From the NCBI GenBank assembly GCA_030647905.1, contig JAUSJA010000033.1:248001-312000 (forward strand): DNA of 64,000 bases, given 5' to 3'. Shown piece by piece: positions 28,952 to 54,837 of the stretch. This DNA comes from Gemmatimonadaceae bacterium (GTDB lineage Bacteria > Gemmatimonadota > Gemmatimonadetes > Gemmatimonadales > Gemmatimonadaceae). Both the position numbers and the translations under genes were made by a program. The notes beneath the pieces are model-generated. The model was not told the origin of the DNA, made no database searches, and worked only from the letters and a program-made list of their open reading frames with translations. Every line of letters starts with the position of its first letter. The stretch's first letter is position 1.

Positions 28952-29319
28952 CCTCTCTCTGGATCAAACATGATTCATCAATTTGCAGACGCCGCTTCGG
29001 TTCTGCACCACCGGCAACGCGCAACCAAGTGTCATGCATGACGACTGTCAGCAGCCGTAGGGGCAAAACCTGCGGAGAGCAGGCAGATGTCCGACAAGAA
29101 GCCCGGCCCCTGGATTTCATTTTGCTCTCAGGCAAGCCCCTGTCCAGACGATTGACCTATTGCCAGCCTGGTTGTGACCAAGTACCGTCCAATCCCGGAA
29201 CGACGTTTTGGTTAGGGGCTCTTGTGCCGGTCCGCCATCGCAATGACCCAGTTATCTTGTCGCGGCGGATTGCCCTAAGCTGATCTGTGTTGAAACACGA
29301 ACCTATGGAGGTTTCCTTG
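28952..29319 (+). promoter_or_regulatory. long spacer before the cytochrome region, possible sigma-54 promoter
   Basis: No gene is seen in this 368-bp stretch. At 29111-29126 the sequence TGGATTTCATTTTGCT has the sigma-54 spacing (GG, ten bases, GC) with a good TTGCT -12 element but a poor -24 extension. It would give a leader of about 180 nt before the ATG at 29320. A TGGAGG ribosome site is at 29306-29311. The promoter is a weak candidate. Confidence 0.35.
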
Positions 29320-30735
29320 ATGAAGAACCTGTTTGCGAAGATCTCGCGGAATCCCATCAGCCTGGCGGGCGTGGTGGTCACCACCATCAGCGCGATCATC
29401 TTCCTGACGCTGTTCGCCATCGAGTTGGTGGGCTTCAGCGGCGGGCCCTACGTCGGTATCATGGCCTTCCTGATCGTCCCCGCCTTCTTTGTGGGCGGCC
29501 TGCTCCTCATCCCCTTCGGGATCTGGCGCGCCGGGCGAAAGGCCAAGCTCGCGGCCGAGAAGGGTGAAGAGCCAGCGCCCGAAAACTTCCCGGTCATCGA
29601 CCTGAACGTGGTCCGGGTTCGCAAGACCGTGCTTTTTTTTGCGGCGCTCACGGTCATCAACGTGGTCATCATCGCCACCGCCACCTACAAGGGCGTAGAA
29701 GTGATGGGATCCACGAAATTCTGCGGCGCCGCCTGCCATAGCGTGATGACGCCGGAGTACACCAGCTACCAGCGCTCCCCGCACGCCCGCGTGAAGTGCG
29801 TGGAATGCCACATCGGGTCGGGCGCGAGCTGGTTCGTGAAGTCGAAACTCTCCGGCTCCTGGCAGCTGGTGTCGGTCGTGTTCAAGCTCTACGAACGACC
29901 CATTCCTACTCCCGTCCACGATCTGCGCCCGGCGCGGGAGACCTGCGAACAGTGCCACTGGCCCACCAAGTTCGTCGGCGACCGCCTGAAGGTCATCACC
30001 AAATTCGACGAGGACGAGCAGAACACCGAGAAGAAGACTGCCCTCCTGGTCCACGTGGGCGGAACCATGGGGTCCACCTCCCGGGGCATTCACTGGCACG
30101 TCGACCCCGGTGTCCGCGTGAGCTATGTGTCCGACGAGAAGCGCGAAACCATCGGCGATGTGGACCTGATCCTGCCCGACGGCACCCACCGGGTCTACAA
30201 GGCTTCCACTGCGCTCGCAACGCCTGCGAAAGCCGTGCGGAACATGGAATGTGTCGATTGCCACAACCGACCCTCGCACATCTACCGACTGCCGGATGAG
30301 GAGGTCAACGCCGCCCTCCTTGATGGCCGCATCGACCGCACCCTGCCCTTCATTCGCCGCGAGGCAGTGAAGGCACTCGAGGCCACCTACGCTACCCGGG
30401 AAGAGGCCAGCGAGAAAATCCGCCAAGCTGTTCAGGGCTTCTACTCGGCCTCATATCCCGACTTGGCTAAGACGAAGGCCCAGTCCATCGCCGCGACGGT
30501 GAAGAGCGCGCAGGGCATCTACAATTCCAATGTCTGGCCCAGCATGAGGATCGCGTGGGGCGCCTACCCGAGCTTCCTCGGCCACACCGCGGCGACCGGC
30601 TGCTTCAGGTGTCACGACGACGAGCACAAGACCTCCGATGGCCGCGCGATCTCCCAGGACTGCGCGCTCTGCCATTCGGTGCTGGCAGAGGATGAGGCCG
30701 ACCCGAAGATTCTGAAGGACATGATCCAGCACTGA
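29320..30735 (+). CDS. NapC/NirT-type (ImcH-like) inner-membrane multiheme cytochrome c
   Basis: The ATG at 29320 follows TGGAGG by 8 bp. The 471-residue protein has three membrane helices (about 17-38, 43-68 and 102-121) and a periplasmic heme domain. There are six heme sites: FCGAACH (135-140, a CX3CH spacing) followed by CVECH, CEQCH, CVDCH, CFRCH and CALCH. The block SPHARVKCVECHIG and the helix-heme order match NapC/NirT quinol dehydrogenases, including Geobacter ImcH-like proteins, which pass electrons from menaquinol to periplasmic cytochromes. It leads the cytochrome region, 52 bp before a lipoprotein gene. Confidence 0.88.
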   Translation: MKNLFAKISRNPISLAGVVVTTISAIIFLTLFAIELVGFSGGPYVGIMAFLIVPAFFVGGLLLIPFGIWRAGRKAKLAAEKGEEPAPENFPVIDLNVVRVRKTVLFFAALTVINVVIIATATYKGVEVMGSTKFCGAACHSVMTPEYTSYQRSPHARVKCVECHIGSGASWFVKSKLSGSWQLVSVVFKLYERPIPTPVHDLRPARETCEQCHWPTKFVGDRLKVITKFDEDEQNTEKKTALLVHVGGTMGSTSRGIHWHVDPGVRVSYVSDEKRETIGDVDLILPDGTHRVYKASTALATPAKAVRNMECVDCHNRPSHIYRLPDEEVNAALLDGRIDRTLPFIRREAVKALEATYATREEASEKIRQAVQGFYSASYPDLAKTKAQSIAATVKSAQGIYNSNVWPSMRIAWGAYPSFLGHTAATGCFRCHDDEHKTSDGRAISQDCALCHSVLAEDEADPKILKDMIQH

Positions 30736-30787
30736 ACCGAGCCATCCTCGAGCACCACACCACACACGTAATTATGGAGACTTCAGT

Positions 30788-31255
30788 ATGAGGAGTTTTG
30801 CAGTGTCACGCCTCGGCTTCTGCTTCGCCGCCGCGGTCACGATCTGGGGCTGTAGCGGGAGCAATGGCGAGCCGCCGAAAACACCACTCGGTCAGGCACA
30901 ACCCGGGAGCATGGGCGCGAGCGACGCGGCCACCCCAGGGGCGATGGGGGACGAGGCAAAGACGGCCCTCGATAGCGGCAACATCCTGTTCAGGGCGAAG
31001 GCTTATGACCGAGCGCTCGTGCAATACCGCCGCTCAGCGCAGCTGGCCCCGACCGAGCCGGCACCGCTCCTCGGCATTCTCATGGTCGCCGACGTGACAA
31101 AGAACGCGAAGCTTGCCGACAGCACGCTCGCGCGCATACGCGCGCTGAATCCGGGGGCGGCGGATTCTTCGGCCGCCATGTCGCAGGCCGAGATCCTCGA
31201 CATTCATTCCGGCGCCAGGAAGGCCCCACCTCCGCCACCCGCGAAAAAGCAGTGA
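30788..31255 (+). CDS. small TPR-like lipoprotein
   Basis: The 155-residue protein has a lipoprotein signal peptide ending IWGCSG with Cys22 as lipidation site, then a proline/glycine-rich linker and one or two tetratricopeptide-like helices (ALDSGNILFRAKAYDRALVQ, SAQLAPTEPAPLLGIL). The C-terminus is a polyproline-lysine tail. It contains no heme motif. It follows the NapC-type gene and may assist assembly or interaction in the periplasm; this is inferred from position only. Confidence 0.7.
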   Translation: MRSFAVSRLGFCFAAAVTIWGCSGSNGEPPKTPLGQAQPGSMGASDAATPGAMGDEAKTALDSGNILFRAKAYDRALVQYRRSAQLAPTEPAPLLGILMVADVTKNAKLADSTLARIRALNPGAADSSAAMSQAEILDIHSGARKAPPPPPAKKQ

Positions 31256-31263
31256 CACAGGGG

Positions 31264-31338
31264 CGCGAGTTGTATATACCGACTCGCGTACCCCCGACAC
31301 CACACGGCGCCAGAGGGGAAACCACCCCGCTGGCGCCG
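31264..31338. terminator. paired hairpins between convergent genes
   Basis: Two inverted repeats lie between the lipoprotein stop (31255) and the MtrB stop (31379). The first has 7-bp arms at 31264-31270 and 31282-31288. The second has CGGCGCCAG at 31305-31313 pairing with CTGGCGCCG at 31330-31338, extended by GGGG/CCCC inside the loop. There is no U-run, so a bidirectional terminator is likely but not certain. Confidence 0.55.
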
Positions 31339-31378
31339 CATATTCCACCGAGTCAACCGCTATTGCGGGAAACTCACG

Positions 31379-33715
31379 CTAGAACATGAAGATCAACCGC
31401 ACCGTGCCGGTCTGGCCTTTATACGGGCGGTTGCCGTAGCCCGTCGTGATCGCGCCGAGCGGATCAATGCGCGGCGTGCCATCCGCCAGGTCCCTCGTGG
31501 CGAAGTCGGTGATATCGAATTTCTCGTACCAATAGCCCACGCCCACGCCCACCTTCGGTCGGAACATGCGCTTCACATCCACCTTCATCTGATGCCACGT
31601 GTTGGTCACATGCGGCAGCGCTTCGAAGCAGGACGTGAGACCCGCCGCGCATGGCTTGCTGTCGCCGGCCGTGAGCGCCGTGTTGGTCGACAGGGCCTGG
31701 ATGCGCGGCCCGCTGTGGATGAACGCGTTGTCCGAGTCGCTGTAGTCGTAGCTGAATCGGATGTCGGTGTTCGGCATCGCCTTGATCAGGTCGAGATAGA
31801 GGCCGGCGTTTTTGACCTTCTCGTCGTTGTCGAGGTTCCAGTCGCGGTTCGGATCCAGCCAGCTCTCATACCTTCCCGCCACGCCCGAGAACGGGTTGGC
31901 GTTGCGCGCCTTTTGCATCGAGCTGAACTTCTCGTAGCCGAAGTTGCCGCCGATGTTGATCGCGTCGGTGGGATAGAACGCGAGCGTGACGCTGTACGCC
32001 GAGTTGGTGTTGTCCAGCAGGCCGAAGTCGTGGCCTTCGCCCTTGTAGACATCCTTGCCGGCCGCCAGCGAGAAGCCGAGTTCCATCTTTTCGTTCGGCG
32101 TCACGGACAGAATCAGTGTGCCCTTGTTGCGGTCGCTATCGGCCTCGTCGTAGAAGCGGAGGCCCGGTTGCGCGCCGCCCTCTTCGATCCTCTCTTCGGA
32201 GAACCCGTTGCCGACGCGGCGGGTGTTCTCGTAGAGGCCGCGGAGCATCGCGTACTGATTCCCATAGGTGTCCACTGACACGCGGAACGTGTAGTCGGTC
32301 ATGTCGCTGAACGCCCGGCCGTCGCGCTTCACGTCGTCGAGAATGTAGCCCAGCTTGATCGCCGCGTTACGCAGCATCGTGAACGTGGCGCCCGTCTCGA
32401 ACGTGTTCCGGCGGATGTTGAAGTGCTCCGTCTCGGTGCCCGTTTCCTCCGGGACCGCGTCGAAGCGCACGTACTCCACCGCGTCGAAGTGCGGCGTCAG
32501 GTTCTGGTGATCGTTGTAGCGATACCGCATGTCGAACGCGAAGTAATCGTTCGGCCGCGTGGTGTAGTTGAGCAGGGCGTTAATGCCGCGGACTTCCGCT
32601 TCCGCGGTCGAGCGCTCCAGCGACTTGAGGGCCGGGAACACCGCGTACACCGCGGCGTTCGCGATCATGGGGTTCGTCGTCCACGGAATCAGCTCCTCGT
32701 TCTGCTTCATCGTCGTCAGCGACAGCTGCCCGTTGAGGGTGCTGTGGCCCGGCATCTTGAAGAGGCCGATGGCGCTCAATGTGTTGAGGCTGTTGCTCGG
32801 CGGCAGCGCCAGCCGGCCGAAAGCCGGGCCGTTGCCGTTACTGTAGCCACTCGGGTCGTACGGACCGAGTGGGGGCAGCTTACCGTTGGTGAAGTTGGTG
32901 GCCCGCAGCGGGTTGTCCCACGTGAGTGACTGGAACTGGTTCTTGAACCAGGAGCCATCCCACGCCACGCGGAGCATGCCGGTGCTGGCCCTGGCCCATT
33001 CGAACCCGGCCGTCAGGTCGTTCGTCCGGTTGTCGAGCGTCATCGGCAGTTCGTTGCCGTCGTTGAATGCGAACGACGCGCCGTAGGGCTGGTTGCCGCT
33101 CTTCTTCGTGGAGCTGAACGCCAGGTTCAGGCCCGCCACATCGGTCAGCCGGTACTTCATCCCGATGCTCATGACGTCGCGACGCGACTGCATCGGGAAC
33201 ACGGTGGCGAGGCCGCGGTAGATCGAGGCCTGGTTGTAGGCCGCCGCGTTGGTGCCGATGCCGAGCACGCCGGCCGCCTTGTTCTGCACCTGAGTGCGCG
33301 CCGCCGCGTCCAACGTCCAGACGTTGCCGCCCTGGTCCTTCCACGGCGTCAGCGTGTTGTAGCCGTAGTTCAGTGGAGTCGAATTCCACATCGCCGTCAC
33401 CTTCAACTTGCCGTAGTTGTTGTAGTCGGCCACGTATTGCTGATCGTGGTAGCCGATGTTCGCGGCGCTGAACCGGAGCGCGGACTTCTCGTTCTCCTTG
33501 CCGGCATCCATTCTAGTCAGGAGGCCGTCCCGCAAATCGCGGTAACGCTCCCATCGAGCTTTGTCGCCGTCAACGGACGAGCCGCGATACCCGAGATCGA
33601 ACCATCCGGAGATCGCCGGAGCCGTGTCCGGAGCTGCGGCGGTTTGCTGTGCGCGCGCCACGCCTGTGAAGGCGAGCACGAGCGCCGCGGTCGAAAGCAT
33701 TAGTCTGTTGCCCAT
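31379..33715 (-). CDS. MtrB/PioB-family outer-membrane beta-barrel
   Basis: The ATG at 33715 is preceded by a GGAGGGAG site and opens a signal peptide (MGNRLMLSTAALVLAFTGVA, cleavage near ARAQQ). The 778-residue protein is a string of amphipathic beta strands with aromatic girdles (DMRYRYNDHQN, FRVSVDTYGNQY, SVTLAFYPTDAINIGG) and ends in LIFMF, the C-terminal phenylalanine expected for outer-membrane barrels. Length and features fit the MtrB/PioB family, which sheathes a decaheme cytochrome across the outer membrane. It lies 16 bp behind the decaheme gene. Confidence 0.88.
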   Translation of the reverse strand: MGNRLMLSTAALVLAFTGVARAQQTAAAPDTAPAISGWFDLGYRGSSVDGDKARWERYRDLRDGLLTRMDAGKENEKSALRFSAANIGYHDQQYVADYNNYGKLKVTAMWNSTPLNYGYNTLTPWKDQGGNVWTLDAAARTQVQNKAAGVLGIGTNAAAYNQASIYRGLATVFPMQSRRDVMSIGMKYRLTDVAGLNLAFSSTKKSGNQPYGASFAFNDGNELPMTLDNRTNDLTAGFEWARASTGMLRVAWDGSWFKNQFQSLTWDNPLRATNFTNGKLPPLGPYDPSGYSNGNGPAFGRLALPPSNSLNTLSAIGLFKMPGHSTLNGQLSLTTMKQNEELIPWTTNPMIANAAVYAVFPALKSLERSTAEAEVRGINALLNYTTRPNDYFAFDMRYRYNDHQNLTPHFDAVEYVRFDAVPEETGTETEHFNIRRNTFETGATFTMLRNAAIKLGYILDDVKRDGRAFSDMTDYTFRVSVDTYGNQYAMLRGLYENTRRVGNGFSEERIEEGGAQPGLRFYDEADSDRNKGTLILSVTPNEKMELGFSLAAGKDVYKGEGHDFGLLDNTNSAYSVTLAFYPTDAINIGGNFGYEKFSSMQKARNANPFSGVAGRYESWLDPNRDWNLDNDEKVKNAGLYLDLIKAMPNTDIRFSYDYSDSDNAFIHSGPRIQALSTNTALTAGDSKPCAAGLTSCFEALPHVTNTWHQMKVDVKRMFRPKVGVGVGYWYEKFDITDFATRDLADGTPRIDPLGAITTGYGNRPYKGQTGTVRLIFMF

Positions 33716-33731
33716 CGTAGTCTCCCTCCAG

Positions 33732-34688
33732 TTAGCGTAGTAAAGCCTTGCCATTGGGCGAATTGGATCCATGGATCTGCGAGTGGCAGATCACGCATCC
33801 ACGGCCCGTGATCTTGTTGGCGTTCGACGAGGTCTTGATGACGAACCCGTCGTACACCGTTGGTGGGTGTCGCGAGGTGACGTGGCAACGCTGGCAGAGG
33901 AAGGGCACTTTCGACACGAGCATGCGTTCGTTGCTCGATCCGTGCGGATCGTGGCAGGTCACGCAGGAGTTGCTGACCGGCGCGTGTTCCCAGAGGGTCG
34001 GTCCGCGCTTTTCGGTGTGACAGCTCGCGCAGGCCTGATCAATCGTGGTGCCGGTCTTCAGCATCTTCACGTTGGCCGAGCCGTGCGTGTTGTGGCACGA
34101 CGAGCACACCAGCTTGTCTTCGCGAACCGGCATGTGGTTGAACCGGTTCAGCTTGCTGACGATGTTCTGGTGGCAGGTTGCGCAAAGCTTCGGCTGCGTC
34201 TCCGTCTTCATCAGCTTCGCGCCCTTCGAGTTGTGCACGCTATGGCACGCCGTGCAGGACACGCGGCGGGCTTCGTGCTTGCTGCCCGCCCAGAGGGCGT
34301 GCTCGCCTGACGCGTGACAGGTCGTGCACACCGCCGACGCCTCGTCGGCGCTGATCTTGTTGAACTGGCGCGGCTTGAACTTCTCCGGATCATCGGCGTG
34401 TTTGCTGCCCGGGCCGTGACAGGACTCGCAGCCCTGCCCCGCGGCCGGTGTCCTGGGGTCGGCGGCCTTGCTATGAAGGGTCTTGCGGAAGCTTGCCATC
34501 TTGTCATCGTGACACTCCAGGCAGGCTTCCGTGCCGACAATCGTCGCGCCGGCTGCCGAAGCCGGAGGCTCAGGCACCTGCGCTCCCGCCCGTGCGAACG
34601 CCACCGCCCACATCAGCACGCTGCATACGAGCCAAAACGTTGGCCCCATTGAGCGAATTCCACTACTCCGACCCGTACTAAATGTCAT
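33732..34688 (-). CDS. decaheme cytochrome c, MtrA/PioA/DmsE family
   Basis: The ATG at 34688 follows CAGGAGGG. The 318-residue protein has a signal peptide (residues about 15-36) and ten CXXCH sites: CLECH, CESCH, CTTCH, CTACH, CATCH, CSSCH, CASCH, CVTCH, CQRCH and CVICH. The pattern ACHSVHNSKG, SCHNTHGSANVKML and TCHDPHGSSNERML is the MtrA/DmsE repeat. Together with the MtrB-like barrel it should form a porin-cytochrome conduit moving electrons between periplasm and cell exterior. No MtrC-like surface cytochrome is encoded in the window. Confidence 0.92.
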   Translation of the reverse strand: MTFSTGRSSGIRSMGPTFWLVCSVLMWAVAFARAGAQVPEPPASAAGATIVGTEACLECHDDKMASFRKTLHSKAADPRTPAAGQGCESCHGPGSKHADDPEKFKPRQFNKISADEASAVCTTCHASGEHALWAGSKHEARRVSCTACHSVHNSKGAKLMKTETQPKLCATCHQNIVSKLNRFNHMPVREDKLVCSSCHNTHGSANVKMLKTGTTIDQACASCHTEKRGPTLWEHAPVSNSCVTCHDPHGSSNERMLVSKVPFLCQRCHVTSRHPPTVYDGFVIKTSSNANKITGRGCVICHSQIHGSNSPNGKALLR

Positions 34689-34798
34689 GGCACCCTCCTG
34701 AGATGCGCCAACCAGAATGAGCCGCTACATCAACCCGCCCGCGAATCCTCACGCCGCCGTGACACAACGGCACCACTAATAATGGTAGTCGTAGGTAT

Positions 34799-34867
34799 TC
34801 GCCGCCTGTCGGGCATTCTGATCGCCGTTTGTCAGGCATTCTGGTCGCCGTTTGTCAGGCATTCACG
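34799..34867. repeat. three tandem 23-bp repeats in a divergent promoter region
   Basis: Three adjacent 23-bp units start at 34799, 34822 and 34845. They share TCGCCG, then TGTCAGGCATTC (unit 1 has CTGTCGGGCATTC). They lie in the 284-bp spacer between mtrA (minus) and the tetraheme cytochrome gene (plus). The core TGTCAGGCAT recurs at 50332-50341 upstream of the sensor kinase. Tandem regulator-binding sites are the likeliest reading; no array of spacers exists, so this is not CRISPR. Confidence 0.75.
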
Positions 34868-34972
34868 GACAGCGGGTCCCCCGCACGCACACGTAGATTA
34901 AGACAGGCGAAACTCATCTTCGGCGTGAGTTCAATTTCACCTTCACCACAAGGCCGACAAGGGGAGCAATTC

Positions 34973-35545: not shown

Positions 35546-37717
35546 ATGAAGCAACGCGTATTTGTTCTTGCGTTGTTCGCTGGAGGCCTCTTTCAACTGA
35601 GTGCAACGTCGGCTCTCGCACAGACGAGAGCCGATTGCCTCACCTGTCACAGCGATTCAGCCCTTTCCAAAGAAGGCCCCGGCAAGAAGACGATCTCGCT
35701 TCATACCGACGAAGCGGTTCTCAACAAGTCGACGCACGCGCGCCTCGCGTGCGTCGCTTGTCATACGGGGTTCAACCCGGACGACCTGCCGCACAAAGCC
35801 AGGATTGAGCCGGTCGCGTGCGTGCGTTGCCACGCCGGCGCGGTGTCCAGGCATCCGTTTCACCCGGAGCTCGCGAAGGCCGTCAGCAGCCACCAGGAAC
35901 CGGGCGTGGCGTGCAAGGATTGCCACGGCACGCACGACGTCGAGTCACTCAAGATGGCCGGCTCGAAGTTCTCCGCGGGGCGTCTCACCGAATCGTGCGG
36001 ATCGTGCCACGAGCTCGAAGCGCAGCACTTTCCAGTATCCGCGCACGGCAAGGCGCTCGCGGCAAGTGTCAAAGGCGCGCCAAACTGCCTGACGTGCCAT
36101 CGCGGCGCGATCGCCTTCGTCGCTGGCACGGCCGATTCGCTCTCGGTCAAACGGGCCCAGGAGCAGCTCTGCCTGTCGTGTCATCTCGACAATCCCGATG
36201 TGCGGGCGCGGACATCGCCGACGGCGGGGTTCATTGGCGCCTACGACAACAGCGTGCATGGCGCCGCGCTGCAAAAAGGCAATGCCAGGGCCGCGAACTG
36301 CGTGAGCTGCCACGGCAGCCACGACATGAAGAAGGGCACCGACCCCGGCTCGTTCGTCAACCGAGCCAACATTCCGGCGACGTGCGCGCAGTGCCACGCC
36401 GACATCGCGAAAACGTTCGGGCAGAGCGTCCACGGCGTGGCGGTGGCGAAGGGCAATTCCGACGCCCCCGTCTGTACGACGTGCCACGGCGAGCACACGA
36501 TTCTTGGCCCGTCCGATCCCCGGTCCCGCGTCGCGGCGAAAAATGTCTCCGCGCAGGTCTGCTCGCCCTGTCATGCGTCGGTCCTGCTGTCGGCCAAGTA
36601 CGGGCTCAATAGCGACCGGTTTCGTACGTTCACCGACAGCTATCACGGGCTGGCGAGCCGCGGTGGGTCCGTCGCGGTCGCCAACTGTGCCAGCTGCCAC
36701 AGCGCCCACGACATCAAGCCGTCGAGCGATCCGACGTCGAGCGTCAACAAGGCGAATCTCGCCGTCACGTGCGGCAGGTGCCACCCGGGTGCCAACGAGC
36801 GATTCGCGATTGGCTCCGTGCACATCTCGCTGACCGCGCAAAAGGAGCCGCTTCTCTACTGGGTCGCGACGGCATACATCATTCTCATCGTCGTGATCGT
36901 CGGCGGCATGCTCGTGCACAACGCCCTCGACTTTGTCAAGAAGTCAAAGCGACTACTGATGGTGCGCCGCGGCCTGGCCGAAGAGGAGCGCGTGGGACAT
37001 GCGCTGTATCTCCGCATGTCACTCGGCGAACGACTACAACACGGGATACTGCTGGTGAGTTTCATCACGCTCGTCATCACGGGGTTCGCGTTGAAGTTCC
37101 CCGAGGCATGGTGGGTGGCGCCGCTGCAGCGCGTCAGCCCGTCGATATTCTCCGTCCGGAGCATCGTGCATCGCATCGCCGGCGTGGTGATGGTCCTCGT
37201 GAGCATCTATCACTGCTACTATCTGTTCTTCGTCCCGCGCGGAAAGCAGCTGCTGCGCGACCTGCTGCCGACGCGCCAGGATTTCCGCGACGCGTTCACC
37301 GTGATGCGTTTCAACCTTGGCATGTCGACGGTCCGAGCGCGATTCGGGCGCTTCAGCTACATCGAAAAGACCGAGTACTGGGCTCTCGTGTGGGGCACCA
37401 TTCTCATGGGAGCCACCGGGGCGATCCTCTGGTTCGACAACACCTTCATCGGCTTGCTCACGAAGCTTGGATGGGACGTCGCGCGCACAATCCACTACTA
37501 CGAGGCCTGGCTCGCGACGCTCGCGATCATCGTGTGGCACATGTACTTCGTGGTTTTCAACCCCGATGTGTACCCGATGAACCTGGCGTGGTGGAAGGGA
37601 ACGCTGACGGAACGGGAGATGCACGAGGAACATCCGCTCGAACTGGAGCGGCTGAAAGAAAACGATGCTGCGCGCGCGAACGCCGGGGATGACGATCCGG
37701 ACGATCGTTCGGCGTGA
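35546..37717 (+). CDS. 13-heme cytochrome c fused to membrane cytochrome b (CbcL-like)
   Basis: A signal peptide (1-26) precedes a periplasmic domain with thirteen CXXCH sites. Their first cysteines are at residues 31, 69, 92, 123, 151, 181, 209, 252, 280, 310, 339, 381 and 409. After one helix (about 436-458) comes a four-helix cytochrome b561/FdnI-like domain with candidate heme-b histidines in ERLQHGILL, IVHRIAG, SIYHCYY and WHMYFVVFNPDVYP. The architecture matches Geobacter CbcL, a menaquinol-oxidising inner-membrane protein needed for low-potential extracellular electron transfer, but has more hemes than the nine reported there. It is middle gene of a three-gene operon. Confidence 0.88.
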   Translation: MKQRVFVLALFAGGLFQLSATSALAQTRADCLTCHSDSALSKEGPGKKTISLHTDEAVLNKSTHARLACVACHTGFNPDDLPHKARIEPVACVRCHAGAVSRHPFHPELAKAVSSHQEPGVACKDCHGTHDVESLKMAGSKFSAGRLTESCGSCHELEAQHFPVSAHGKALAASVKGAPNCLTCHRGAIAFVAGTADSLSVKRAQEQLCLSCHLDNPDVRARTSPTAGFIGAYDNSVHGAALQKGNARAANCVSCHGSHDMKKGTDPGSFVNRANIPATCAQCHADIAKTFGQSVHGVAVAKGNSDAPVCTTCHGEHTILGPSDPRSRVAAKNVSAQVCSPCHASVLLSAKYGLNSDRFRTFTDSYHGLASRGGSVAVANCASCHSAHDIKPSSDPTSSVNKANLAVTCGRCHPGANERFAIGSVHISLTAQKEPLLYWVATAYIILIVVIVGGMLVHNALDFVKKSKRLLMVRRGLAEEERVGHALYLRMSLGERLQHGILLVSFITLVITGFALKFPEAWWVAPLQRVSPSIFSVRSIVHRIAGVVMVLVSIYHCYYLFFVPRGKQLLRDLLPTRQDFRDAFTVMRFNLGMSTVRARFGRFSYIEKTEYWALVWGTILMGATGAILWFDNTFIGLLTKLGWDVARTIHYYEAWLATLAIIVWHMYFVVFNPDVYPMNLAWWKGTLTEREMHEEHPLELERLKENDAARANAGDDDPDDRSA

Positions 37718-37750
37718 CCGTTCAGCCACGTGTCAATCTGGAACCGTGAC

Positions 37751-40531
37751 ATGACAACGCTGAAGTTGGTCATTCCCGCCTTCGCGCTGGCGCTCCTGCT
37801 TGGTCACCCCGGGAGCGCCGCCGCGCAGGCGAATGATGACTGCTTCACGTGCCATACCGACAAGGCTCTCACCAAGAAGCGTGGCGGCAGGACGGTTTCG
37901 TTGTACGTGGACCAGGCCAGGTTCGAAGCTACGATCCATGGGAAGAAATCCTGCATCGACTGCCACGCGGACCTGAAGGGCAAGGAACTCCCGCACGACG
38001 AGACGCTCAAGCCGGCCGCATGCGGCAGCTGCCACGCGGACGAGCAACGGCAGCACACCGCGTCGCTCCATGGCAGGGCGATCGCCCGCGGCGACCAGTT
38101 GGCGCCGCATTGCATCGACTGCCACGGCAGCCACCAGATCGTAGCGGGAAAAGATCCGCGCTCTCCGGTGCAACCCGCCCGCATTCCGTATCTGTGCGGC
38201 AAGTGCCACTCCGAAGGCACGCCGGTTCAGAAGCAGCGCGAGATCCACCAGTCCAACATCGTGAGCAACTATTCGGAGAGCATGCACGGCGATGCACTCA
38301 TGAATAAGGGGCTGGTGGTGGCGGCGACGTGCGTGTCCTGCCACACCGCGCACTCGATACTCCCGCACACCGACCCCAGGTCGTCGATCGCGCGCGCGAA
38401 CATCGCGGCGACTTGCTCGCAGTGCCACGCGCAAATCGAGGCGGTCCACCGCAAAGTCATCCAGGGCCAGCTGTGGGAAAAGGAGGCGCACGTCCTCCCC
38501 GCCTGCGTCGACTGCCACGAACCACACAAGGTCCGCAAGGTCTTCTACGACCAGGGAATGGCGGATCGCGATTGCCTGCGCTGCCACGAACGACGTGACA
38601 TCAAGGCGTCCAGGGACGGACGGTCGCTCTACGTCGATAGCATTGCAATGGCCGGCTCGATCCACGTCAAGCAAGCCTGCAGCCAGTGCCACACCGGCGT
38701 CACCCCCTCGCGCATGCGCCCGTGTGAGACGCTGACACAGAAAGTGAATTGTGCATCGTGTCACGCCGAGATCGGAACGCAGTACCAGAAGAGCACGCAC
38801 GGCCAGCTGGAGGCGAAGCGCGACAACAACGCACCGACCTGCAAGCAGTGCCACGGCACGCACGGAGTGCTCGGCAAACGCGATCCGAGGTCGGCGTCGT
38901 TCCCGACACGTGTCCCCACGTTGTGCGCACAGTGCCACCGCACCGGGCAAAAGGCCGCCCTTCGCTACACCGGCACCGAAACCGAGATCGTGGAGCGGTA
39001 CACCGAGAGCATCCACGGCAAGGGACTAATCGAGAGCGGGCTCGTCGTCACCGCCACGTGCACGAGTTGCCACACCGCGCACAGCGTGCTCCCGCGCGAT
39101 AGCACGCAGTCGAGCGTCAACCGCAAGAACCTCCCCGCGACGTGCGGAGCCTGTCACGCCGGCATTGAAAAGCAGTTCGAGCGCAGTGTGCACTCGGCGA
39201 GCGTCACGAAGACCGGCCAGAAGCTGCCCGTGTGCGATGACTGCCACACCGCCCACACCATCAGCCGCACCGACGCGGCGGGCTTCAAGCTCCGCATCAT
39301 GAATCAGTGCGGCAACTGCCACGAAGCGATTGCCAAAACGTATTTCGAGACCTATCACGGCAAGGTCTCGCGTCTCGGGTACACCAAGACGGCGCAGTGT
39401 TACGACTGCCACGGTTCGCACGACATCCTGCCGGTCACCGATGCGCGATCTCACCTGAGTCGCGGCAACGTGGTGGCCACGTGCAAGAAGTGCCATGCGG
39501 GCGCCACGCGGCGCTTCGCGGGGTACCTGACGCACGCGACCCACCACGACCCCGGCAAGTACCCCGTGCTCTTCTGGGTCTTCTGGGCAATGACCAGCCT
39601 GCTGGTCGTGACCTTCACCGTTGCCGGAGCACATACGCTGCTCTGGCTGCCGCGTGCGCTGAAGATGCGCCGCGAGTTCGGCAGGCATCCGGCCGCGGTC
39701 GAGGGGGAACTCGAGTACGAAAGGTTCTCGCGGCTGAATCGCGCGCTGCACGTGACCATGATCGTCAGCTTCATCAGCCTCGCCCTCACCGGAATGACGC
39801 TGAAGTTCGCGTACACCAAGTGGGCGTCGGTGCTCTCACACCTGCTCGGTGGATTCGAGACGGCCGGCTACATCCACCGCACGGCGGCGGTGGCGATGGT
39901 CGGTGTGTTCATCGCGCACATCGTCGATGTGATACGCGGCAAACGCCGCGAAAAAACCCCGTGGAAGGATCTGCTCTTCGGGCCGAAGTCGATGATGTTC
40001 GGGCCCAAAGACCTCGCGGACTTCGTGGGGTCCATCAAGTGGTTCCTCGGACTCGGCAAGCGTCCGCACTATGGCCGCTGGACCTACTGGGAAAAATTCG
40101 ACTACTTCGCGGTGTTCTGGGGCATCGCGGTGATCGGCACGACCGGATTGTCGCTGTGGTTCCCGACGTTCTTCGCGTGGTTCCTGCCCGGCTGGTTCGT
40201 CAACGTGGCGACCATCATCCACAGCGACGAGGCGTTGCTCGCGACCGGGTTCATTTTCACGATTCACTTCTTCAACACGCACCTGCGTCCTGAGAAGTTC
40301 CCGATGGACATCGTGGTCTTCACCGGTCGCATGACCGTTGAAGAGCTGATGCACGACAAGCCCGCCGAGTACGAGGAACTGGTCGCGAATGGCGAACTGG
40401 AGAAACACCTCGTCGTACCCTATCAGCCGATCGTGATCAGGACGATTCGCGCATTCGCGTGGACGGCGCTCGCCGTCGGATTCATGATGGTGCTGTGGAT
40501 TGTCTATGCGATGCTGTTCTCGTACGCATGA
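37751..40531 (+). CDS. 19-heme cytochrome c fused to membrane cytochrome b
   Basis: I chose ATG 37751, which opens a signal peptide ([18 protein letters not shown]); an upstream GTG adds seven residues. The 926-residue protein has nineteen CXXCH sites between residues 31 and 582. Hemes 1-8 (C31, 68, 91, 121, 149, 194, 222, 252) and 9-16 (C275, 310, 334, 364, 392, 437, 465, 495) are a tandem duplication offset by about 243 residues; hemes 17-19 form a partial third copy. A helix near 605-630 leads to a cytochrome b561-like domain ([48 protein letters not shown]). It is a paralogue of the upstream 13-heme protein and a likely quinol:cytochrome oxidoreductase. Confidence 0.88.
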
Positions 40532-40569
40532 TGCGTTCACGGTTAGAGACGCGCCCCTCCTGCGGTCAC

Positions 40570-40632: not shown

Positions 40633-40702
40633 TATCGAATCATGGACGGAAGACGCGATCTAACATATTCACCAGCAATGTGTTGGACGTTTCGATGAGG
40701 AG

Positions 40703-40718
40703 TGGAACGGCCCTTGCC
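40703..40718 (+). promoter_or_regulatory. sigma-54 promoter (-24/-12) for the Rieske operon
   Basis: TGGAACGGCCCTTGCC matches the sigma-54 consensus TGGCACG-N4-TTGCW at 10 of 12 fixed positions with the exact GG-N10-GC spacing (GG 40704-40705, GC 40716-40717). Transcription should begin near 40729, giving a 90-nt leader to the ATG at 40819. Confidence 0.65.
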
Positions 40719-40818
40719 AACTATGTATATATTTATGGGTTCACGATCAGCAACGGGGTGCGCACGGTTGGCGAACATCGACTCACAGCACGGCACGGGA
40801 AGCCCTGATCAAGGGCCG

Positions 40819-41337
40819 ATGGATGCGCCGCAGGTTGGGCGGCGCAGATTCCTTCATATAGTCAGCGGCATCGGCGCGGCGCTCTCCGCCGTCGTCGTCG
40901 GGTTTCCCGTCGTTCGGGCCTTTGTCTCGCCGACGCTTCCGTCGCCGCCGAAGGACGACTGGATCAAAGTGGCCGAAGACACGGCACTGCTCGACGTGGG
41001 CGTCCCCATCCAGCTGAACTTCGTCGTGTCAGAACAGGATGCGTGGATCGAGAGCCGGACGGTCAAAAACGTGTGGCTGTTCAGCGAGGACGGGGAGAAG
41101 TTCAAGGCGTATAACGGTCGTTGCACGCACCTCGGGTGCGGCTTCGTCTGGGACAAGGACGCAAACAACTTCCTCTGTCCCTGCCACCGCGGGCGATTCG
41201 ACCTCAGGACCGGCGCGGTGCTCAGCGGACCTCCTCCCCGTCCGCTCGACGAGCTCGAGGTGGAGATCCGCGACAGCGTCGTCTTCGTGAAGTACAAGGA
41301 GTTCCGGTTGGGCATTCCCGCACGCATCGAAGCCTGA
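40819..41337 (+). CDS. Rieske 2Fe-2S protein of a bc-type complex
   Basis: The start at ATG 40819 gives 172 residues with a twin-arginine-like N-terminus (GRRRFLHIVSGIGAAL) and one membrane anchor. The cluster ligands are C102-T-H104 and C120-P-C-H123, with C107/C122 as the expected disulfide, in CTHLGCGFVW and CPCHRGRFD. This is the quinol-oxidising Rieske subunit of a cytochrome bc/b6f-type complex. The next gene, 4 bp downstream, encodes the cytochrome b subunit. Expression is probably from the sigma-54 promoter at 40703. Confidence 0.92.
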   Translation: MDAPQVGRRRFLHIVSGIGAALSAVVVGFPVVRAFVSPTLPSPPKDDWIKVAEDTALLDVGVPIQLNFVVSEQDAWIESRTVKNVWLFSEDGEKFKAYNGRCTHLGCGFVWDKDANNFLCPCHRGRFDLRTGAVLSGPPPRPLDELEVEIRDSVVFVKYKEFRLGIPARIEA

Positions 41338-41341
41338 GGCC

Positions 41342-42832
41342 GTGAACCCGATCTTCCGCTGGCTCGACGAGCGCGTTGACCTTCGCGCCATCAAGGAGCA
41401 GTTGCTCGACCGCAAGATGCCGGGCAACCTCACGTGGGCGCACACGCTCGGAAGTGCGACGCTCGCAGTCTTCCTCGTTCAGGTCGTTACCGGCGTAGTG
41501 CTCGCGATGTACTACGCGCCATCGCCGGACCACGCGTACGACAGCATCCGCTACTTGCAGGAACACGTGCTGAGCGGCTCTCTCCTGCGCGGCATCCACC
41601 ATTGGGCCGCTTCGGCGATGGTCGTGCTCGTGCTCGCCCACATGATCCGCGTGTTCTCGACGGGTGCGTACAAATACCCGCGTGAGATCAACTGGCTGCT
41701 CGGCGTCGTGCTCCTGTTCCTGGTGCTCGGCTTCAGCTTCACCGGCTACCTGCTGCCGTGGGACCAGAAGGCCTATTGGGCGACGCAAGTGGGCACCAAC
41801 ATTGCCGGCACGACGCCAGTTGTCGGCGGGATGTTGGTGAAGCTGCTTCGTGGTGGCTCGCAGCTTGGCGCGGCCACACTGTCGCGCTTCTTCGCGCTGC
41901 ACGTATTGCTGATGCCGCTGTTGCTCGCAGTGGTGGTCTTTCTGCACCTCGCGATCGTCGTTCGCCAGGGCATCGCGGCGCGAACGGGAGCACTCGAAGA
42001 GGGAGCGCCGCCGCGCACCAGTGATCCGGAGTACCCCGCGTACTACAAACAGGCGTACGAAAGGAGCAAGGGCGCCGGCGTCCGCTTCTATCCTGACCTC
42101 ACCACGAAGGACATCGTGGTGGCGACGGCGATCATCCTGGTCCTCGTGCTGCTTGGTAGCTTCGTTGGAGCCGGACTCGAACCGCCGGCGGACCCGACGG
42201 ATAACACCTATGTCCCGCGCCCGGAATGGTATTTCCTGCCGTTCTTCCAGCTGCTGAAACTGGTCCCCGGGTCGATGGAAGGCGTAGTTGCGGTCGGCAT
42301 TCCGGCCGCGCTGGTGATCATGCTGGTGGCGCTGCCATTCTTCGACCGCGGCAGCGCGCGCGCATTCTCCAAGCGCCCGATCGCCCGTTTCTCGCTGTTC
42401 TTCCTGCTTGGCAGCTCCGCCCTCTTGCTGGGAGCATCGTTCACCGGTGAGCAGCCGGGGGCCGTTGTGGCTGAAGCCGGGCGACCACTCTCGAACATCG
42501 AGCGCTCGGGCAAGGCGATGTTTGGCGCTCAGCAATGCGGGAGCTGTCATGCCGTCACGGGCAAGGGAGGCGGGAGCAAGGAAAACGCGCCCAACCTCTC
42601 GATGATCGGCCTGAAGCATTCCGGCGCGTGGATTCACAGCTTCATCGAGAATCCACTCCGGTTCCACCCCCACTCGACGATGCCAAGTTACGGCCCGCCG
42701 ACGATTTCCCACCAGGACATCGAAGAGCTCACGCGCTACCTCATGACGCTGCGCGGCCCCAATGGCGAACTCACGAAGCCCGAGTTCGTTGACACGTTCC
42801 CTGAGTTCCCCAAATCCAAGGAGAAGTTGTGA
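41342..42832 (+). CDS. cytochrome b fused to a C-terminal c-type heme domain
   Basis: The 496-residue protein contains a full cytochrome b: candidate heme ligands H86/H87, H100, H187 and H202, GTTP at 156-159 and the quinol-site motif PEWYFLPF (294-301) in the subunit-IV-like part. After a helix (351-366) comes a monoheme cytochrome c domain with C399-G-S-C402-H403 and a likely Met447 ligand. So one chain supplies cytochrome b and the c1-equivalent acceptor. It starts with GTG 41342. With the Rieske protein it forms a compact quinol:cytochrome c oxidoreductase. Fused b-c proteins occur in some Gram-positive and deep-branching bacteria. Confidence 0.9.
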   Translation: MNPIFRWLDERVDLRAIKEQLLDRKMPGNLTWAHTLGSATLAVFLVQVVTGVVLAMYYAPSPDHAYDSIRYLQEHVLSGSLLRGIHHWAASAMVVLVLAHMIRVFSTGAYKYPREINWLLGVVLLFLVLGFSFTGYLLPWDQKAYWATQVGTNIAGTTPVVGGMLVKLLRGGSQLGAATLSRFFALHVLLMPLLLAVVVFLHLAIVVRQGIAARTGALEEGAPPRTSDPEYPAYYKQAYERSKGAGVRFYPDLTTKDIVVATAIILVLVLLGSFVGAGLEPPADPTDNTYVPRPEWYFLPFFQLLKLVPGSMEGVVAVGIPAALVIMLVALPFFDRGSARAFSKRPIARFSLFFLLGSSALLLGASFTGEQPGAVVAEAGRPLSNIERSGKAMFGAQQCGSCHAVTGKGGGSKENAPNLSMIGLKHSGAWIHSFIENPLRFHPHSTMPSYGPPTISHQDIEELTRYLMTLRGPNGELTKPEFVDTFPEFPKSKEKL

Positions 42833-43167
42833 TGAAACGCGTTATCCTCGCAGGCCTGGCGTTCGCGGCCTCTGGCGCCATATCGAACGCCAGCGCCCAG
42901 GCAGTGGACGCAAAGGCCGTCTACGATGCGAACTGCAAGAAATGCCACGGGGTGGTGGGCAAACCACCGAAGGCGATGGCGACGAAGTTCCCCAAGATCG
43001 CCGCGTTTGACGCCGCGTTTTTCGCGAAGCGATCCGACGATTCAGTTGTCAAGGTCCTCACGAAGGGAAAGAGCGCGGGTATGAAGTCGTTCAAGGACAA
43101 GATGACACCGGCGGAGATGGCCGCCGTCGCCAGGTACGTGCGCGCGTTTGCAACGAAGGCGAAGTAA
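42832..43167 (+). CDS. periplasmic monoheme cytochrome c
   Basis: The ATG at 42832 overlaps the stop of the cytochrome b-c gene (TGATG). A signal peptide (1-23) is followed by a class I type c domain of about 88 residues with CKKCH (heme), PKIAAFD and the methionine-bearing KSAGMKSFKDKMTPAEM. It is a soluble one-heme carrier that probably accepts electrons from the fused b-c protein. It ends the operon, ahead of the terminator at 43261-43331. Confidence 0.9.
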   Translation: MKRVILAGLAFAASGAISNASAQAVDAKAVYDANCKKCHGVVGKPPKAMATKFPKIAAFDAAFFAKRSDDSVVKVLTKGKSAGMKSFKDKMTPAEMAAVARYVRAFATKAK

Positions 43168-43260
43168 GCACCAACACTGGAGACTGGGGTGCATCACGGC
43201 CGTGTGAACCCCGTGTAGTGCGTCTCTGAAGCCGTGCGGCGGAACTGCGCGTCGCCACAG

Positions 43261-43331
43261 GCACAACACCGCAACACAAAGGGCTCCGGGAGTCGAACCC
43301 CGGGGCCTTTTGCGGTTTTCGTTTGTTGTGC
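43261..43331. terminator. extended bidirectional terminator between two convergent operons
   Basis: A central hairpin (GGCTCCGGG 43282-43290 with CCCGGGGCC 43298-43306, one G-U pair) is followed by TTTT and a second TTTT on the plus strand. Outer arms CCGCAA/TTGCGG and GCACAAC/GTTGTGC extend the symmetry. It separates the Rieske-bc operon from the oppositely transcribed NrfD operon. Confidence 0.75.
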
Positions 43332-43400
43332 ACCTGCCTGGTGGCCCGCTCCCTTGTCAGCTGCTGGTTGGGGCGGGCCACGACGTTCGCGGTGGTGCGC

Positions 43401-44195
43401 TCAGCTGCCCGCGTCTGCGGGCAGGACCTCGGCCTCGCGCGGCGCGCGGGTCAGCGCACTCCTCAGGCCGTCCATCATGTCCATCGGCAACGGAATGATC
43501 GTGCTGTTCCCTTCGCCAGCGATTTCCACGAGCGTCTGGAGATACCGCAACTGCAACGCCGGCGGCTCGTTCCGAATGATGTGCGCGGCCTTGGCGAGTG
43601 TCGTCGCCGCGAGGAATTCGCCGTCGGCGCGAATGATCTTCGCGCGTTTCTCGCGCTCCGCCTCAGCCTGCGCCGCCATCGAGCGCTGCATCCCTTCCGG
43701 CAACAGAACATCTTTCACTTCGACGACCGAGACCTTCACGCCCCACGGTTCGGTCTGCCCGTCAATGATCTGCTGCAGCGTGTGATTGATCTTCTCGCGG
43801 TGGGCGAGCAGTTCGTCGAGCTCTGACTGGCCCAGTACGCTACGGAGCGTCGTCAGAGCGATCTGCGATGTCGCCCTGGCGAAATCCACTACCTGCAGGA
43901 GCGCTTTCGCTGGATCGATCACGGCGAAATACACCACCGCGTCCACCTTGATCGTCACGTTGTCCCGCGTGATGATCTCCTGGGGCTCGACCGTGAGGGT
44001 CACGGTTCGCGTGTCGATCTTGTACAGGCGGTCGACCAGCGGAATGATCAGATTGAAGCCCGGCGATCGGATGCCGGTCAACCGACCGAGGCGCAGCAGC
44101 ACTCCGCGTTCATACTGCTGCACGATCTTCACGCCAAACCTGAGGGCAACGACGACGATTGCTGCGACGATCCACGGCACATAGGTGCTACTCAT
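43401..44195 (-). CDS. SPFH/stomatin-like (slipin) membrane protein
   Basis: The 264-residue protein has one N-terminal membrane helix and an SPFH/band-7 domain: YERGVLLRLGRLTGIRSPGFN, VTLTVEPQEIITRDNV, ALTTLRSVLGQSELDELLA, then a charged coiled-coil (MAAQAEAEREKRAKIIRADGE, about 175-195). Slipins organise membrane microdomains or scaffold membrane complexes. It is the last gene after NrfD, 34 bp away, so it might stabilise the redox complex or the local membrane; this is an inference. The NfeD partner often found with slipins is not present here. Confidence 0.85.
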   Translation of the reverse strand: MSSTYVPWIVAAIVVVALRFGVKIVQQYERGVLLRLGRLTGIRSPGFNLIIPLVDRLYKIDTRTVTLTVEPQEIITRDNVTIKVDAVVYFAVIDPAKALLQVVDFARATSQIALTTLRSVLGQSELDELLAHREKINHTLQQIIDGQTEPWGVKVSVVEVKDVLLPEGMQRSMAAQAEAEREKRAKIIRADGEFLAATTLAKAAHIIRNEPPALQLRYLQTLVEIAGEGNSTIIPLPMDMMDGLRSALTRAPREAEVLPADAGS

Positions 44196-44229: not shown

Positions 44230-45468
44230 TCACTTGAACTTCGTGAGATTCTTCAGTGGCACGTACTCGGGCGGCTTGTCTCTCAGCCACCGCGTTGGAA
44301 AGGTCGAGATGGGTCCCCAGAGCGGCAGGACCCGCGAGAAGACCAGCATTGCAACAAATGGAAGCGTGAAAAGGAAGAGCACGGCGAGCAGGCCTTCGCG
44401 CCCATAGATGTCGATCTGAAAATCCAGAAATCCGCGGAAGCTCTTTGAGAACATCTGCCCGCCCATGACCACGTTCCAGCGCATGGCAAGCACCTGCACC
44501 AGGAGCAGGATACCCGACACGAAGCCCATCACGTTGCGCACGCCGGCGGGGATCCTGTTCCTGAACACCACGGCCGCACCCAACAGAAGGAATGGAACGA
44601 CCGATCCGATCAGGAACTGCACCACGAAAAGGCTCACCAGGAGCTTGTCGAGGATCAGGTGTTTCATGATGTCCCAGTCGTGGTTGGCCATATACGCGTG
44701 GTTCAGCAGCTCCAGCCCTTCGAGCGCGACGTCGACCATCACGAAGTACCAGGCCGATTCCATCATCGACTGCGTGCACTCCGAGTCGACGGGCCTTTTG
44801 TTGAACCACTGCACGATGAGGTAACACACCATCACCATCGCGATGCCGGAGACGATCGCGCTGAGGAGGAAGATCACCGGCATCAGTGGGCTTGCCCACC
44901 AGGGGTTCGCCTTGATCGCGCCGAACAGAAACCCCACATATCCGTGCAGGAAGCACGCCGCCGGAACGCCGATGGCGGCGAGGAACAGCATCACCTTGCG
45001 GTCGAGCGCCTTGGCTTCTTCCGAGATGTCGGTCACGCCGAGCGCCAGAATCCAGTACAGGCGGCGCATCATTTCAGACTTGGCGTTGCTCGCCAGGAAG
45101 ACGATGTCGACCCGGTACAACAACCAGATCTCGACCACGAGAATGAGCAGGTAAATGGTGTAGATGAATCCGAATCCCGCCATCGCCGACGTCACGTTGG
45201 GCGTGAACATGATGTTCAGGGCTCGCTCCGGATGCCCGAGGTGCGCCAGCAACGGGAGAGGGGCACAGAGCAGAAAGGCCAGCGCCATCAGCATCGCGAA
45301 GCGGCTGACCGGCTTCAGCTCATCCCTGTCAAAGACGTGGTGGAGCGACGAGATGATGAATGCGCCGGCGACGATGCCGGTGATGTATGGATACAGGACG
45401 ATCATCATCGTCCAGTAGATGTGCGCCTGGTTCGGCAGGACGTAACCTTGGGTGACGTAATGATGCAT
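44230..45468 (-). CDS. NrfD-family membrane quinone-interacting subunit
   Basis: The ATG at 45468 lies 2 bp after the FeS gene stop; longer frames enter that gene. The 412-residue protein has about ten membrane helices and NrfD/PsrC-family stretches (IYWTMMIVLYPYITGIVAGAF, LLAHLGHPERALNIMF, ACFLHGYVGFLFGAIKANPWW). Such subunits exchange electrons between the quinone pool and an attached iron-sulfur subunit. Neighbours are a 4Fe-4S protein and a tetraheme cytochrome, giving the composition of Geobacter Cbc4 (cytochrome, FeS, NrfD). No molybdopterin subunit is nearby. Confidence 0.9.
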   Translation of the reverse strand: MHHYVTQGYVLPNQAHIYWTMMIVLYPYITGIVAGAFIISSLHHVFDRDELKPVSRFAMLMALAFLLCAPLPLLAHLGHPERALNIMFTPNVTSAMAGFGFIYTIYLLILVVEIWLLYRVDIVFLASNAKSEMMRRLYWILALGVTDISEEAKALDRKVMLFLAAIGVPAACFLHGYVGFLFGAIKANPWWASPLMPVIFLLSAIVSGIAMVMVCYLIVQWFNKRPVDSECTQSMMESAWYFVMVDVALEGLELLNHAYMANHDWDIMKHLILDKLLVSLFVVQFLIGSVVPFLLLGAAVVFRNRIPAGVRNVMGFVSGILLLVQVLAMRWNVVMGGQMFSKSFRGFLDFQIDIYGREGLLAVLFLFTLPFVAMLVFSRVLPLWGPISTFPTRWLRDKPPEYVPLKNLTKFK

Positions 45469-45470
45469 GC

Positions 45471-46876: not shown

Positions 46877-46915
46877 GGGTTGGACCACCGTGCTGACGTG
46901 GTCGGACTATGTGCT

Positions 46916-54118: not shown

Positions 54119-54120
54119 TT

Positions 54121-54828: not shown

Positions 54829-54837
54829 GCGAGACCC

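What the first reader, a model, noticed from the sequence alone, without database searches (positions are those of the whole stretch)
31379..34688. MtrAB conduit without a surface cytochrome
A decaheme MtrA-family protein and an MtrB/PioB-family barrel are adjacent, but no MtrC/OmcA-type extracellular multiheme cytochrome is present. This resembles PioAB of iron-oxidising phototrophs or the MtoAB systems, in which electrons may flow inward from Fe(II). The direction of electron flow in this locus is therefore open.
Basis: partly seen in the sequence, partly recalled or inferred. Interest (0 to 1): 0.6.

Follow-up and report, generated by a model that had tools for sequence, protein, structure and literature searches.

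The report
MtrAB conduit wired into ImcH/CbcL cassette
A bacterium of the phylum Gemmatimonadota carries a protein wire through its outer membrane with no large heme protein on the cell surface, and the wire's genes sit inside a gene set that normally feeds electrons out of the inner membrane, which suggests that it respires outward and that such wires can be swapped between bacteria like modules.

Summary
33732-34688(-) is a decaheme MtrA and 31379-33772(-) a 26-strand MtrB-type barrel. No MtrC-class protein was found in the unit or in a genome-wide survey (98.6% complete). The reading 'like PioAB/MtoAB, direction open' is only partly supported: MtrA is outside the MtoA and DmsE clades (AU p 0.0008, 7e-7); PioA is not excluded by MtrA (p 0.13) but disfavoured by MtrB (p 0.0145; one reference); RuBisCO is absent. 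The pair lies inside a cassette of an ImcH-like and two CbcL-like quinol oxidases plus a tetraheme cytochrome, beside a Rieske/cytochrome b operon, an NrfD complex, a sigma-54 two-component system and ccm genes. That points to outward flow.

New here: against a same-genus genome the window has a 4.15-kb insert carrying a different MtrAB between ImcH and the tetraheme gene, whose upstream block is inverted to face MtrA (three 23-bp repeats). The relative instead has a distinct MtrAB behind its Rieske/cytochrome b genes, where the window has none. MtrAB near ImcH recurs in several phyla; a 2018 survey reported none. An MtrC-less conduit with Geobacter-type inner-membrane partners: new variant of a known kind. 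Direction and function remain inference.

The parts
29287..30735 (+). ImcH-like quinol oxidase: three N-terminal membrane segments, CX3CH and 5 CX2CH (a start within the first 30 codons is possible)
   Evidence: NapC/NirT PF03264; hydropathy and CGAACH at residue 146; 89% identical to G002
30788..31255 (+). small putative lipoprotein, no heme; lies inside the inserted stretch, a homologue lies upstream of imcH in G002
   Evidence: no Pfam match
30759..34907 (.). inserted stretch relative to G002 (4.15 kb against 178 bp)
   Evidence: blastn with L214
31379..33772 (-). MtrB-type 26-strand outer-membrane barrel (likely start 33715); no N-terminal CXXC
   Evidence: PF11854; model and fold match to 6r2q_B
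33732..34688 (-). MtrA-type decaheme cytochrome c
   Evidence: TIGR03508 over cut-off; 6r2q_A; trees
34753..34867 (-). upstream block: three 23-bp direct repeats (34799-34867) plus 46 bp, inverted relative to G002 so that it faces mtrA
   Evidence: the only three sites with 0-1 mismatch in the genome
34973..35512 (+). tetraheme cytochrome c554-like (listed ORF 34829-35512)
   Evidence: PF13435; 4 hemes
35546..37717 (+). CbcL-like: 13 hemes plus b561-type membrane domain
   Evidence: PF14522, PF01292; 13 CXXCH
37730..40531 (+). CbcL-like: 19 hemes plus b561-type membrane domain
   Evidence: PF14522, PF01292; 19 CXXCH
40538..40541 (.). junction between the ImcH/CbcL cassette and the Rieske/cytochrome b operon
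   Evidence: G002 homology on contig C45 ends at 40538, on C79 begins at 40541
40702..43167 (+). Rieske protein, cytochrome b with c-type heme domain, monoheme cytochrome c
   Evidence: PF00355, PF00033, PF00034; 92% identical DNA to G002
43171..43459 (.). site where G002 carries its own MtrAB; none in the window
   Evidence: L055 3.7 kb against 290 bp here
44230..46888 (-). tetraheme cytochrome (46358-46888), 4Fe-4S protein (45471-46511), NrfD (44230-45681)
46916..50127 (-). NtrC-type sigma-54 response regulator and dCache/HAMP histidine kinase
   Evidence: kinase homologue near MtrA in L182, kinase and regulator beside MtrA in L056
51511..56243 (-). cytochrome c maturation genes (CcmF, CcmE, CcmC-type, CcmB, CcmA)

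Best explanation
This is an MtrC-less MtrAB conduit that carries respiratory electrons outward. Menaquinol is oxidised by ImcH- and CbcL-like proteins, possibly also by the Rieske/cytochrome b and NrfD complexes. Electrons pass through the tetraheme cytochrome (and other small c-type cytochromes) to the inner end of MtrA, cross the outer membrane inside MtrB, and leave at the outermost MtrA heme to soluble or small acceptors such as chelated Fe(III), humics or shuttles. Shown: the genes, folds, trees, absence of an MtrC-class protein, and the insertion/inversion relative to a same-genus genome. Inferred: that the inverted block is a promoter/operator, that it co-regulates MtrAB with the cassette, the electron path, the direction, the acceptors.
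For: Domains and folds. ImcH architecture and two multiheme-b561 proteins in the same cluster. In Geobacter ImcH works above -0.1 V, CbcL at lower potential, CbcBA near -0.2 V (PMC12307469, passages). [quoted passage not shown] Insert and inverted block facing mtrA at 110 bp, against 113 bp from the tetraheme gene in G002. Nearest MtrAB relatives lie beside 2-oxoacid:ferredoxin oxidoreductase genes (L058, L060; by eye in several g26 loci), which fits an electron sink for catabolism. ImcH near MtrA in 5 of 80 named loci and in one row with CbcL and MtrAB in L175. No RuBisCO in 9 of 9 genomes.
Against: No expression or physiology. CbcL-type proteins also occur in Fe(II) oxidisers, and MtrCAB has been run in both directions (PMC8805035, passages). 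PioA is not excluded by the MtrA data. In genus g26 the ImcH/CbcL cassette and MtrAB lie on different contigs, so their union here could be coincidental. The oxidoreductase neighbours of the nearest relatives are not kept here (1.85 of 3.1 Mb examined). G002 contigs are short (4.1, 3.6 and 8.9 kb). Cyc2 and reaction-centre genes were not searched.
Confidence: 0.6

Rival explanations
1. Inward conduit (PioAB/MtoAB-like): Fe(II) or another outside donor reduces MtrA, and electrons enter the quinone pool through CbcL- or bc-type complexes.
For: MtrC-less architecture; no N-terminal CXXC in MtrB, as in the PioB and MtoB rows; CbcL-type proteins occur in Fe(II) oxidisers; MtrA does not reject a clade with PioA (p 0.13).
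Against: No RuBisCO in 9 of 9 genomes; MtoA clade rejected; MtrB disfavours PioB; ImcH known only from Fe(III) reducers in the 2018 survey; relatives beside 2-oxoacid oxidoreductases.
Confidence: 0.22
2. DmsEF-like: a terminal reductase on or outside the outer membrane is fed through MtrAB.
For: The DmsE family model TIGR03508 is over cut-off, though it covers MtrA-type proteins in general (my reading).
Against: DmsE clade rejected (p 6.7e-7); no molybdopterin reductase among the neighbours scanned, while true DmsE loci have one next door.
Confidence: 0.04
3. The MtrAB insert is a passenger, or a relocated paralogue with no functional tie to the ImcH/CbcL cassette, which feeds another acceptor.
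For: In g26 genomes the two sets lie on separate contigs; mtrAB is on the opposite strand; the operator repeats are absent from the g26 loci read.
Against: Inverted upstream block at nearly the same distance facing mtrA; it is the only MtrAB of the genome; ImcH/CbcL with MtrAB recurs elsewhere.
Confidence: 0.14

Closest known systems
MtrCAB of Shewanella (PDB 6r2q)
   Same: Decaheme MtrA (E 3e-61) in a 26-strand MtrB
   Different: No MtrC found anywhere; no MtrB CXXC; separate clade; inner-membrane partners ImcH/CbcL, not CymA
MtoAB of Sideroxydans/Gallionella
   Same: MtrAB without MtrC
   Different: MtrA clade rejected; the Mto cluster has tetraheme CymA/ImoA and MtoD (PMC12016527, passages)
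PioAB of Rhodopseudomonas
   Same: MtrAB without MtrC; position relative to PioA not resolved by MtrA
   Different: MtrB disfavours it; no RuBisCO
ImcH/CbcL/CbcBA pathway of Geobacter
   Same: ImcH-like and CbcL-like quinol oxidases plus a bc-type operon in one stretch
   Different: Outer-membrane step is MtrAB, not a porin-cytochrome (Pcc) conduit or OmcS-type filaments (recalled)
Desulfuromonas acetexigens Mtr with ImcH and CbcL (PMC12133095, passages)
   Same: ImcH, CbcL and MtrAB in one organism, mtrC away from mtrAB
   Different: It has MtrC and a CymA homologue; here no MtrC was found, and MtrAB lies inside the ImcH/CbcL cassette
Rieske/cytochrome b-linked MtrAB of other Gemmatimonadota (L051, L053-L055, L057)
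   Same: Same phylum, MtrC-less, next to cytochrome b genes
   Different: MtrA only 38-42% identical; same-genus monophyly rejected (p 1.6e-5 and 4e-52)
Geobacter GSU2203/GSU2204 families (NCBIfam)
   Same: MtrA scores 269 bits to NF041028
   Different: Below its cut-off of 325; MtrB only 19 bits to NF041027

Membership tests
MtrAB core conduit | decaheme MtrA/DmsE family (TIGR03508) | tested here: met
   261.8 bits against 192.2
MtrAB core conduit | MtrB/PioB barrel, Pfam PF11854 | tested here: met
   243.3 bits against 23
MtrAB core conduit | NCBIfam TIGR03509 MtrB/PioB subfamily cut-off | tested here: not met
   178.4 bits against 240.05
MtrAB core conduit | 26-strand barrel like 6r2q_B | tested here: met
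MtrCAB | MtrC/OmcA-type surface cytochrome | tested here: not met
MtrCAB | N-terminal CXXC in MtrB (feature recalled) | tested here: not met
   6 of 48 MtrB rows have it, all MtrC- or DmsA-linked; window has none
MtoAB | MtrA in the MtoA clade | tested here: not met
   p-AU 0.00079
MtoAB | MtrB in the MtoB clade | tested here: inconclusive
   test did not finish; the free tree separates them
PioAB | MtrA and MtrB group with PioA and PioB | tested here: inconclusive
   MtrA p 0.13, MtrB p 0.0145, one reference row
PioAB | autotrophic carbon fixation through RuBisCO | tested here: not met
PioAB | photosynthetic reaction centre | not tested
DmsEF | MtrA in the DmsE clade | tested here: not met
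   p-AU 6.7e-7
DmsEF | adjacent DMSO reductase | tested here: not met
   none among neighbours scanned
ImcH | 3 N-terminal TM, CX3CH, and 5 to 9 CX2CH (PMC6295460, passages) | tested here: met
CbcL/MtrH/MtoC | 3 to 23 CX2CH followed by a HydC/FdnI-like b-type domain (PMC6295460) | tested here: met
   13 and 19 CX2CH, PF01292
CbcL/MtrH/MtoC | six TM helices | tested here: inconclusive
   simple hydropathy shows about four or five segments

The most novel reading that the evidence does not exclude
Natural rewiring of respiration: a Gemmatimonadota lineage swapped its outer-membrane conduit. The Rieske/cytochrome b-linked MtrAB was lost, and a distantly related MtrC-less MtrAB landed inside the ImcH/CbcL cassette and took over the upstream control block of the tetraheme-CbcL genes. 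That made a compact hybrid of Geobacter-type inner-membrane oxidases and a Shewanella-type outer-membrane wire, with up to five quinol-linked modules feeding one wire that needs no surface cytochrome.
Probability: 0.4. Interest if true: 0.68.

Novelty: new variant of a known kind. Interest (0 to 1): 0.52.

Why it matters
MtrC-less MtrAB pairs are usually taken as hints of inward flow. This locus ties one to quinol oxidases of outward respiration and gives a clean comparison, two same-genus genomes with two different conduits at two different sites, that makes the modularity of outer-membrane wires testable. It also shows MtrAB beside ImcH in several phyla, which the 2018 survey (PMC6295460, passages) reported as not found.

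Tried and rejected
DmsEF membership: rejected. MtoAB membership: rejected for MtrA; MtrB test unfinished and not repeated. PioAB: left open. A surface cytochrome elsewhere in the genome: none of 9 or more hemes outside the window. Sequence search of MtrB against solved structures found nothing; the fold search did. Keeping the 2-oxoacid oxidoreductase link in the window: only distant homologues, 30-41% identical, were seen in the 1.85 Mb examined. A wider regulon of the repeats: no other site with 0-1 mismatch in the genome; 39 against 21 control sites at up to 3 mismatches. A sigma-54 promoter at the block: looked for by eye, not convincing. I first took L060:11730-14585 for RnfC; Pfam shows an oxidoreductase. 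Lateral transfer against differential loss for the window-type MtrAB is unresolved: the window is sister to, not inside, the g26 group, and g26 genomes hold both types. AU groups were chosen after seeing the trees. L117 was counted among 30 'large multiheme' loci only because its PioA ORF is long. Literature: eight searches listed no paper that, by title and abstract start, describes this arrangement; that is no proof of absence.
Full report
WHAT IS THERE. The window is G000:C33:248001-312000 of a 3.1-Mb, 37-contig genome, 98.59% complete. It belongs to the Gemmatimonadota: the same-genus genome G012 and the named record L066 (Gemmatimonadetes bacterium palsa_1239) share an identical MtrA row on contigs of the same length. 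On the minus strand lie mtrA (33732-34688, 10 CXXCH) and mtrB (ORF 31379-33772, likely start 33715). Family scans, a PDB sequence match for MtrA, and a model and fold search for MtrB agree that this is an MtrAB pair. MtrB stays below the stricter NCBIfam cut-off.

NO SURFACE CYTOCHROME. Only one MtrA and one MtrB exist in the genome. PF22113 (MtrC-type domain) gives no own-genome match over cut-off. The CXXCH DNA motif has 244 places against 175 for the reversed control. Reading the first 100 places and then the stretches of C26-C37 leaves, outside the window, an 8-heme protein (C25), a 5-heme ActA-like protein (C23), two 4-heme proteins (C33 end, C27) and dihemes. None has 9 or more hemes. 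The 4-heme protein at C33:329.6 kb may be a lipoprotein; a small surface role for it is not excluded.

SURROUNDINGS. The plus strand has an ImcH-like protein (29287-30735), a heme-free lipoprotein, a tetraheme cytochrome (34973-35512), CbcL-like proteins with 13 and 19 hemes (35546-37717, 37730-40531), then Rieske, cytochrome b-c and cytochrome c (40702-43167). On the minus strand follow an NrfD-type complex (44230-46888), a sigma-54 regulator with its kinase (46916-50127) and ccm genes (51511-56243).

PHYLOGENY. In a tree of 89 MtrA and one of 53 the window joins a well-supported clade. In the larger tree this holds L058 (Gemmatimonadetes nzgw229), L059, L060 (both Acidobacteriota) and L061 (titled Acidimicrobiia), support 100/97; in the smaller, the g26 genomes of the same family as well, 99/94 for all 13 rows. 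MtrB gives the same clade (100/100). Same-genus sequences (L053-L055) belong to another clade; holding them with the window is rejected for MtrA (p 1.6e-5) and MtrB (4e-52). MtoA is rejected (0.00079), DmsE rejected (6.7e-7), PioA not rejected by MtrA (0.13) but rejected by MtrB (0.0145). The DmsE references were checked by their molybdopterin neighbour.

DISTRIBUTION. In a phylum sample 28 of 395 genomes have MtrA at E <= 1e-40. The window type (60-72% identity) was seen in 8 of the 10 g26 genomes with any match, and in 0 of 18 other genomes of the window's genus. ImcH was found in 22 of 395, the CbcL-like query in 68 of 395, many of them partial or distant matches. In L216-L218 and L222 ImcH lies next to and divergent from tetraheme-CbcL13-CbcL19, without MtrAB between.

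THE REARRANGEMENT. Genome G002, same genus, has ImcH, tetraheme and CbcL13 contiguous (L214). Window DNA matches it up to 30758 and again from 34908 (87-91% identity), with 4.15 kb between in the window against 178 bp in G002. The mtrAB homology to g26 fills 31377-34721. The block 34753-34841 is the reverse of the G002 block upstream of the tetraheme gene, 80% identical; it carries three 23-bp repeats with its 3' neighbour (two in G002) and lies 110 bp from the mtrA ATG (113 bp from the tetraheme ATG in G002). These repeats have no other site with 0-1 mismatch in the genome. At the second site G002 carries its own MtrAB between cytochrome c and an SPFH gene, 3.7 kb against 290 bp in the window; L051, L053, L054 and L057 also have MtrAB beside cytochrome b, so that order is probably ancestral (inference). 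The cassette and the Rieske operon meet at 40538/40541 in the window; in G002 they lie on different contigs with other neighbours. G002 contigs are short, so these junctions need a better assembly.

RECURRENCE. ImcH lies within about 10 kb of MtrA in 5 of 80 named loci (L061, L067, L079, L107, L133; only 38 of 80 have full flanks). In L061 it directly precedes mtrA; in L067 and L175 MtrA, MtrB, CbcL and ImcH follow each other on one strand. L107 and L133 also have large MtrC-like cytochromes. The 2018 survey found no mtrAB next to imcH (PMC6295460, passages). ImcH, CbcL and Mtr in one organism is already in print for Desulfuromonas acetexigens (PMC12133095, passages). MtrCAB in Gemmatimonadetes is also in print, one species in Group 3 (PMC8805035, passages).

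MECHANISM. ImcH, CbcL and CbcBA of Geobacter oxidise menaquinol at different potentials (PMC12307469, passages); this locus holds counterparts of the first two and a different bc-type operon. Without MtrC the exposed outer heme of MtrAB can reduce soluble substrates (PMC7198977, passages). I therefore infer outward flow to soluble or small acceptors. Against this, MtrAB is reversible, CbcL-type proteins occur on both sides of the iron cycle, and nothing here was measured. No RuBisCO was found in 9 genomes; other carbon-fixation routes, Cyc2 and reaction centres were not searched.

VERDICT. Observation confirmed; interpretation partly supported; a new variant of a known kind, with an unusually readable case of conduit exchange.

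Noticed in passing
L167 9877-14500 and L169 9302-14090: Tandem duplicated window-type MtrAB in genus g26, next to ferredoxin oxidoreductase-like genes.
   Followed up: partly
L175 6419-14180: The Vicinamibacteria genome of L060 has a second, distant MtrAB type in one row with a CbcL-like and an ImcH-like gene.
   Followed up: partly
L180 5063-11400: A bc-type MtrAB lies directly upstream of the tetraheme/FeS/NrfD genes homologous to window 44230-46888.
   Followed up: no
L061: Record titled Acidimicrobiia carries an outer-membrane MtrB barrel; the taxonomic label is doubtful.
   Followed up: no
L072: Record titled Sulfotelmatobacter has an MtrA very near the Gemmatimonadota L054: misbinning or transfer.
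   Followed up: no
window 29287-30735: The window ImcH is 51% identical to that of Rubrivivax L133 but only about 42% to those of g26 in the same cassette position, so this gene too may have been exchanged.
   Followed up: partly
window 37730-40531: The 19-heme CbcL is 85% identical to that of G297, of another family, against 75-79% to g26 of the same family.
   Followed up: no
MtrB rows: An N-terminal CXXC occurs in 6 of 48 MtrB rows, all next to MtrC-type cytochromes or a DmsA-like reductase.
   Followed up: partly
G000:C23 about 15-20 kb (L047): Alternative complex III-like genes (5-heme protein, molybdopterin/FeS protein) in the same genome.
   Followed up: no
window 25840-27234: A beta-eliminating lyase (tryptophanase-like) lies 4 kb from mtrB; a similar-looking gene follows mtrB in L054.
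   Followed up: no
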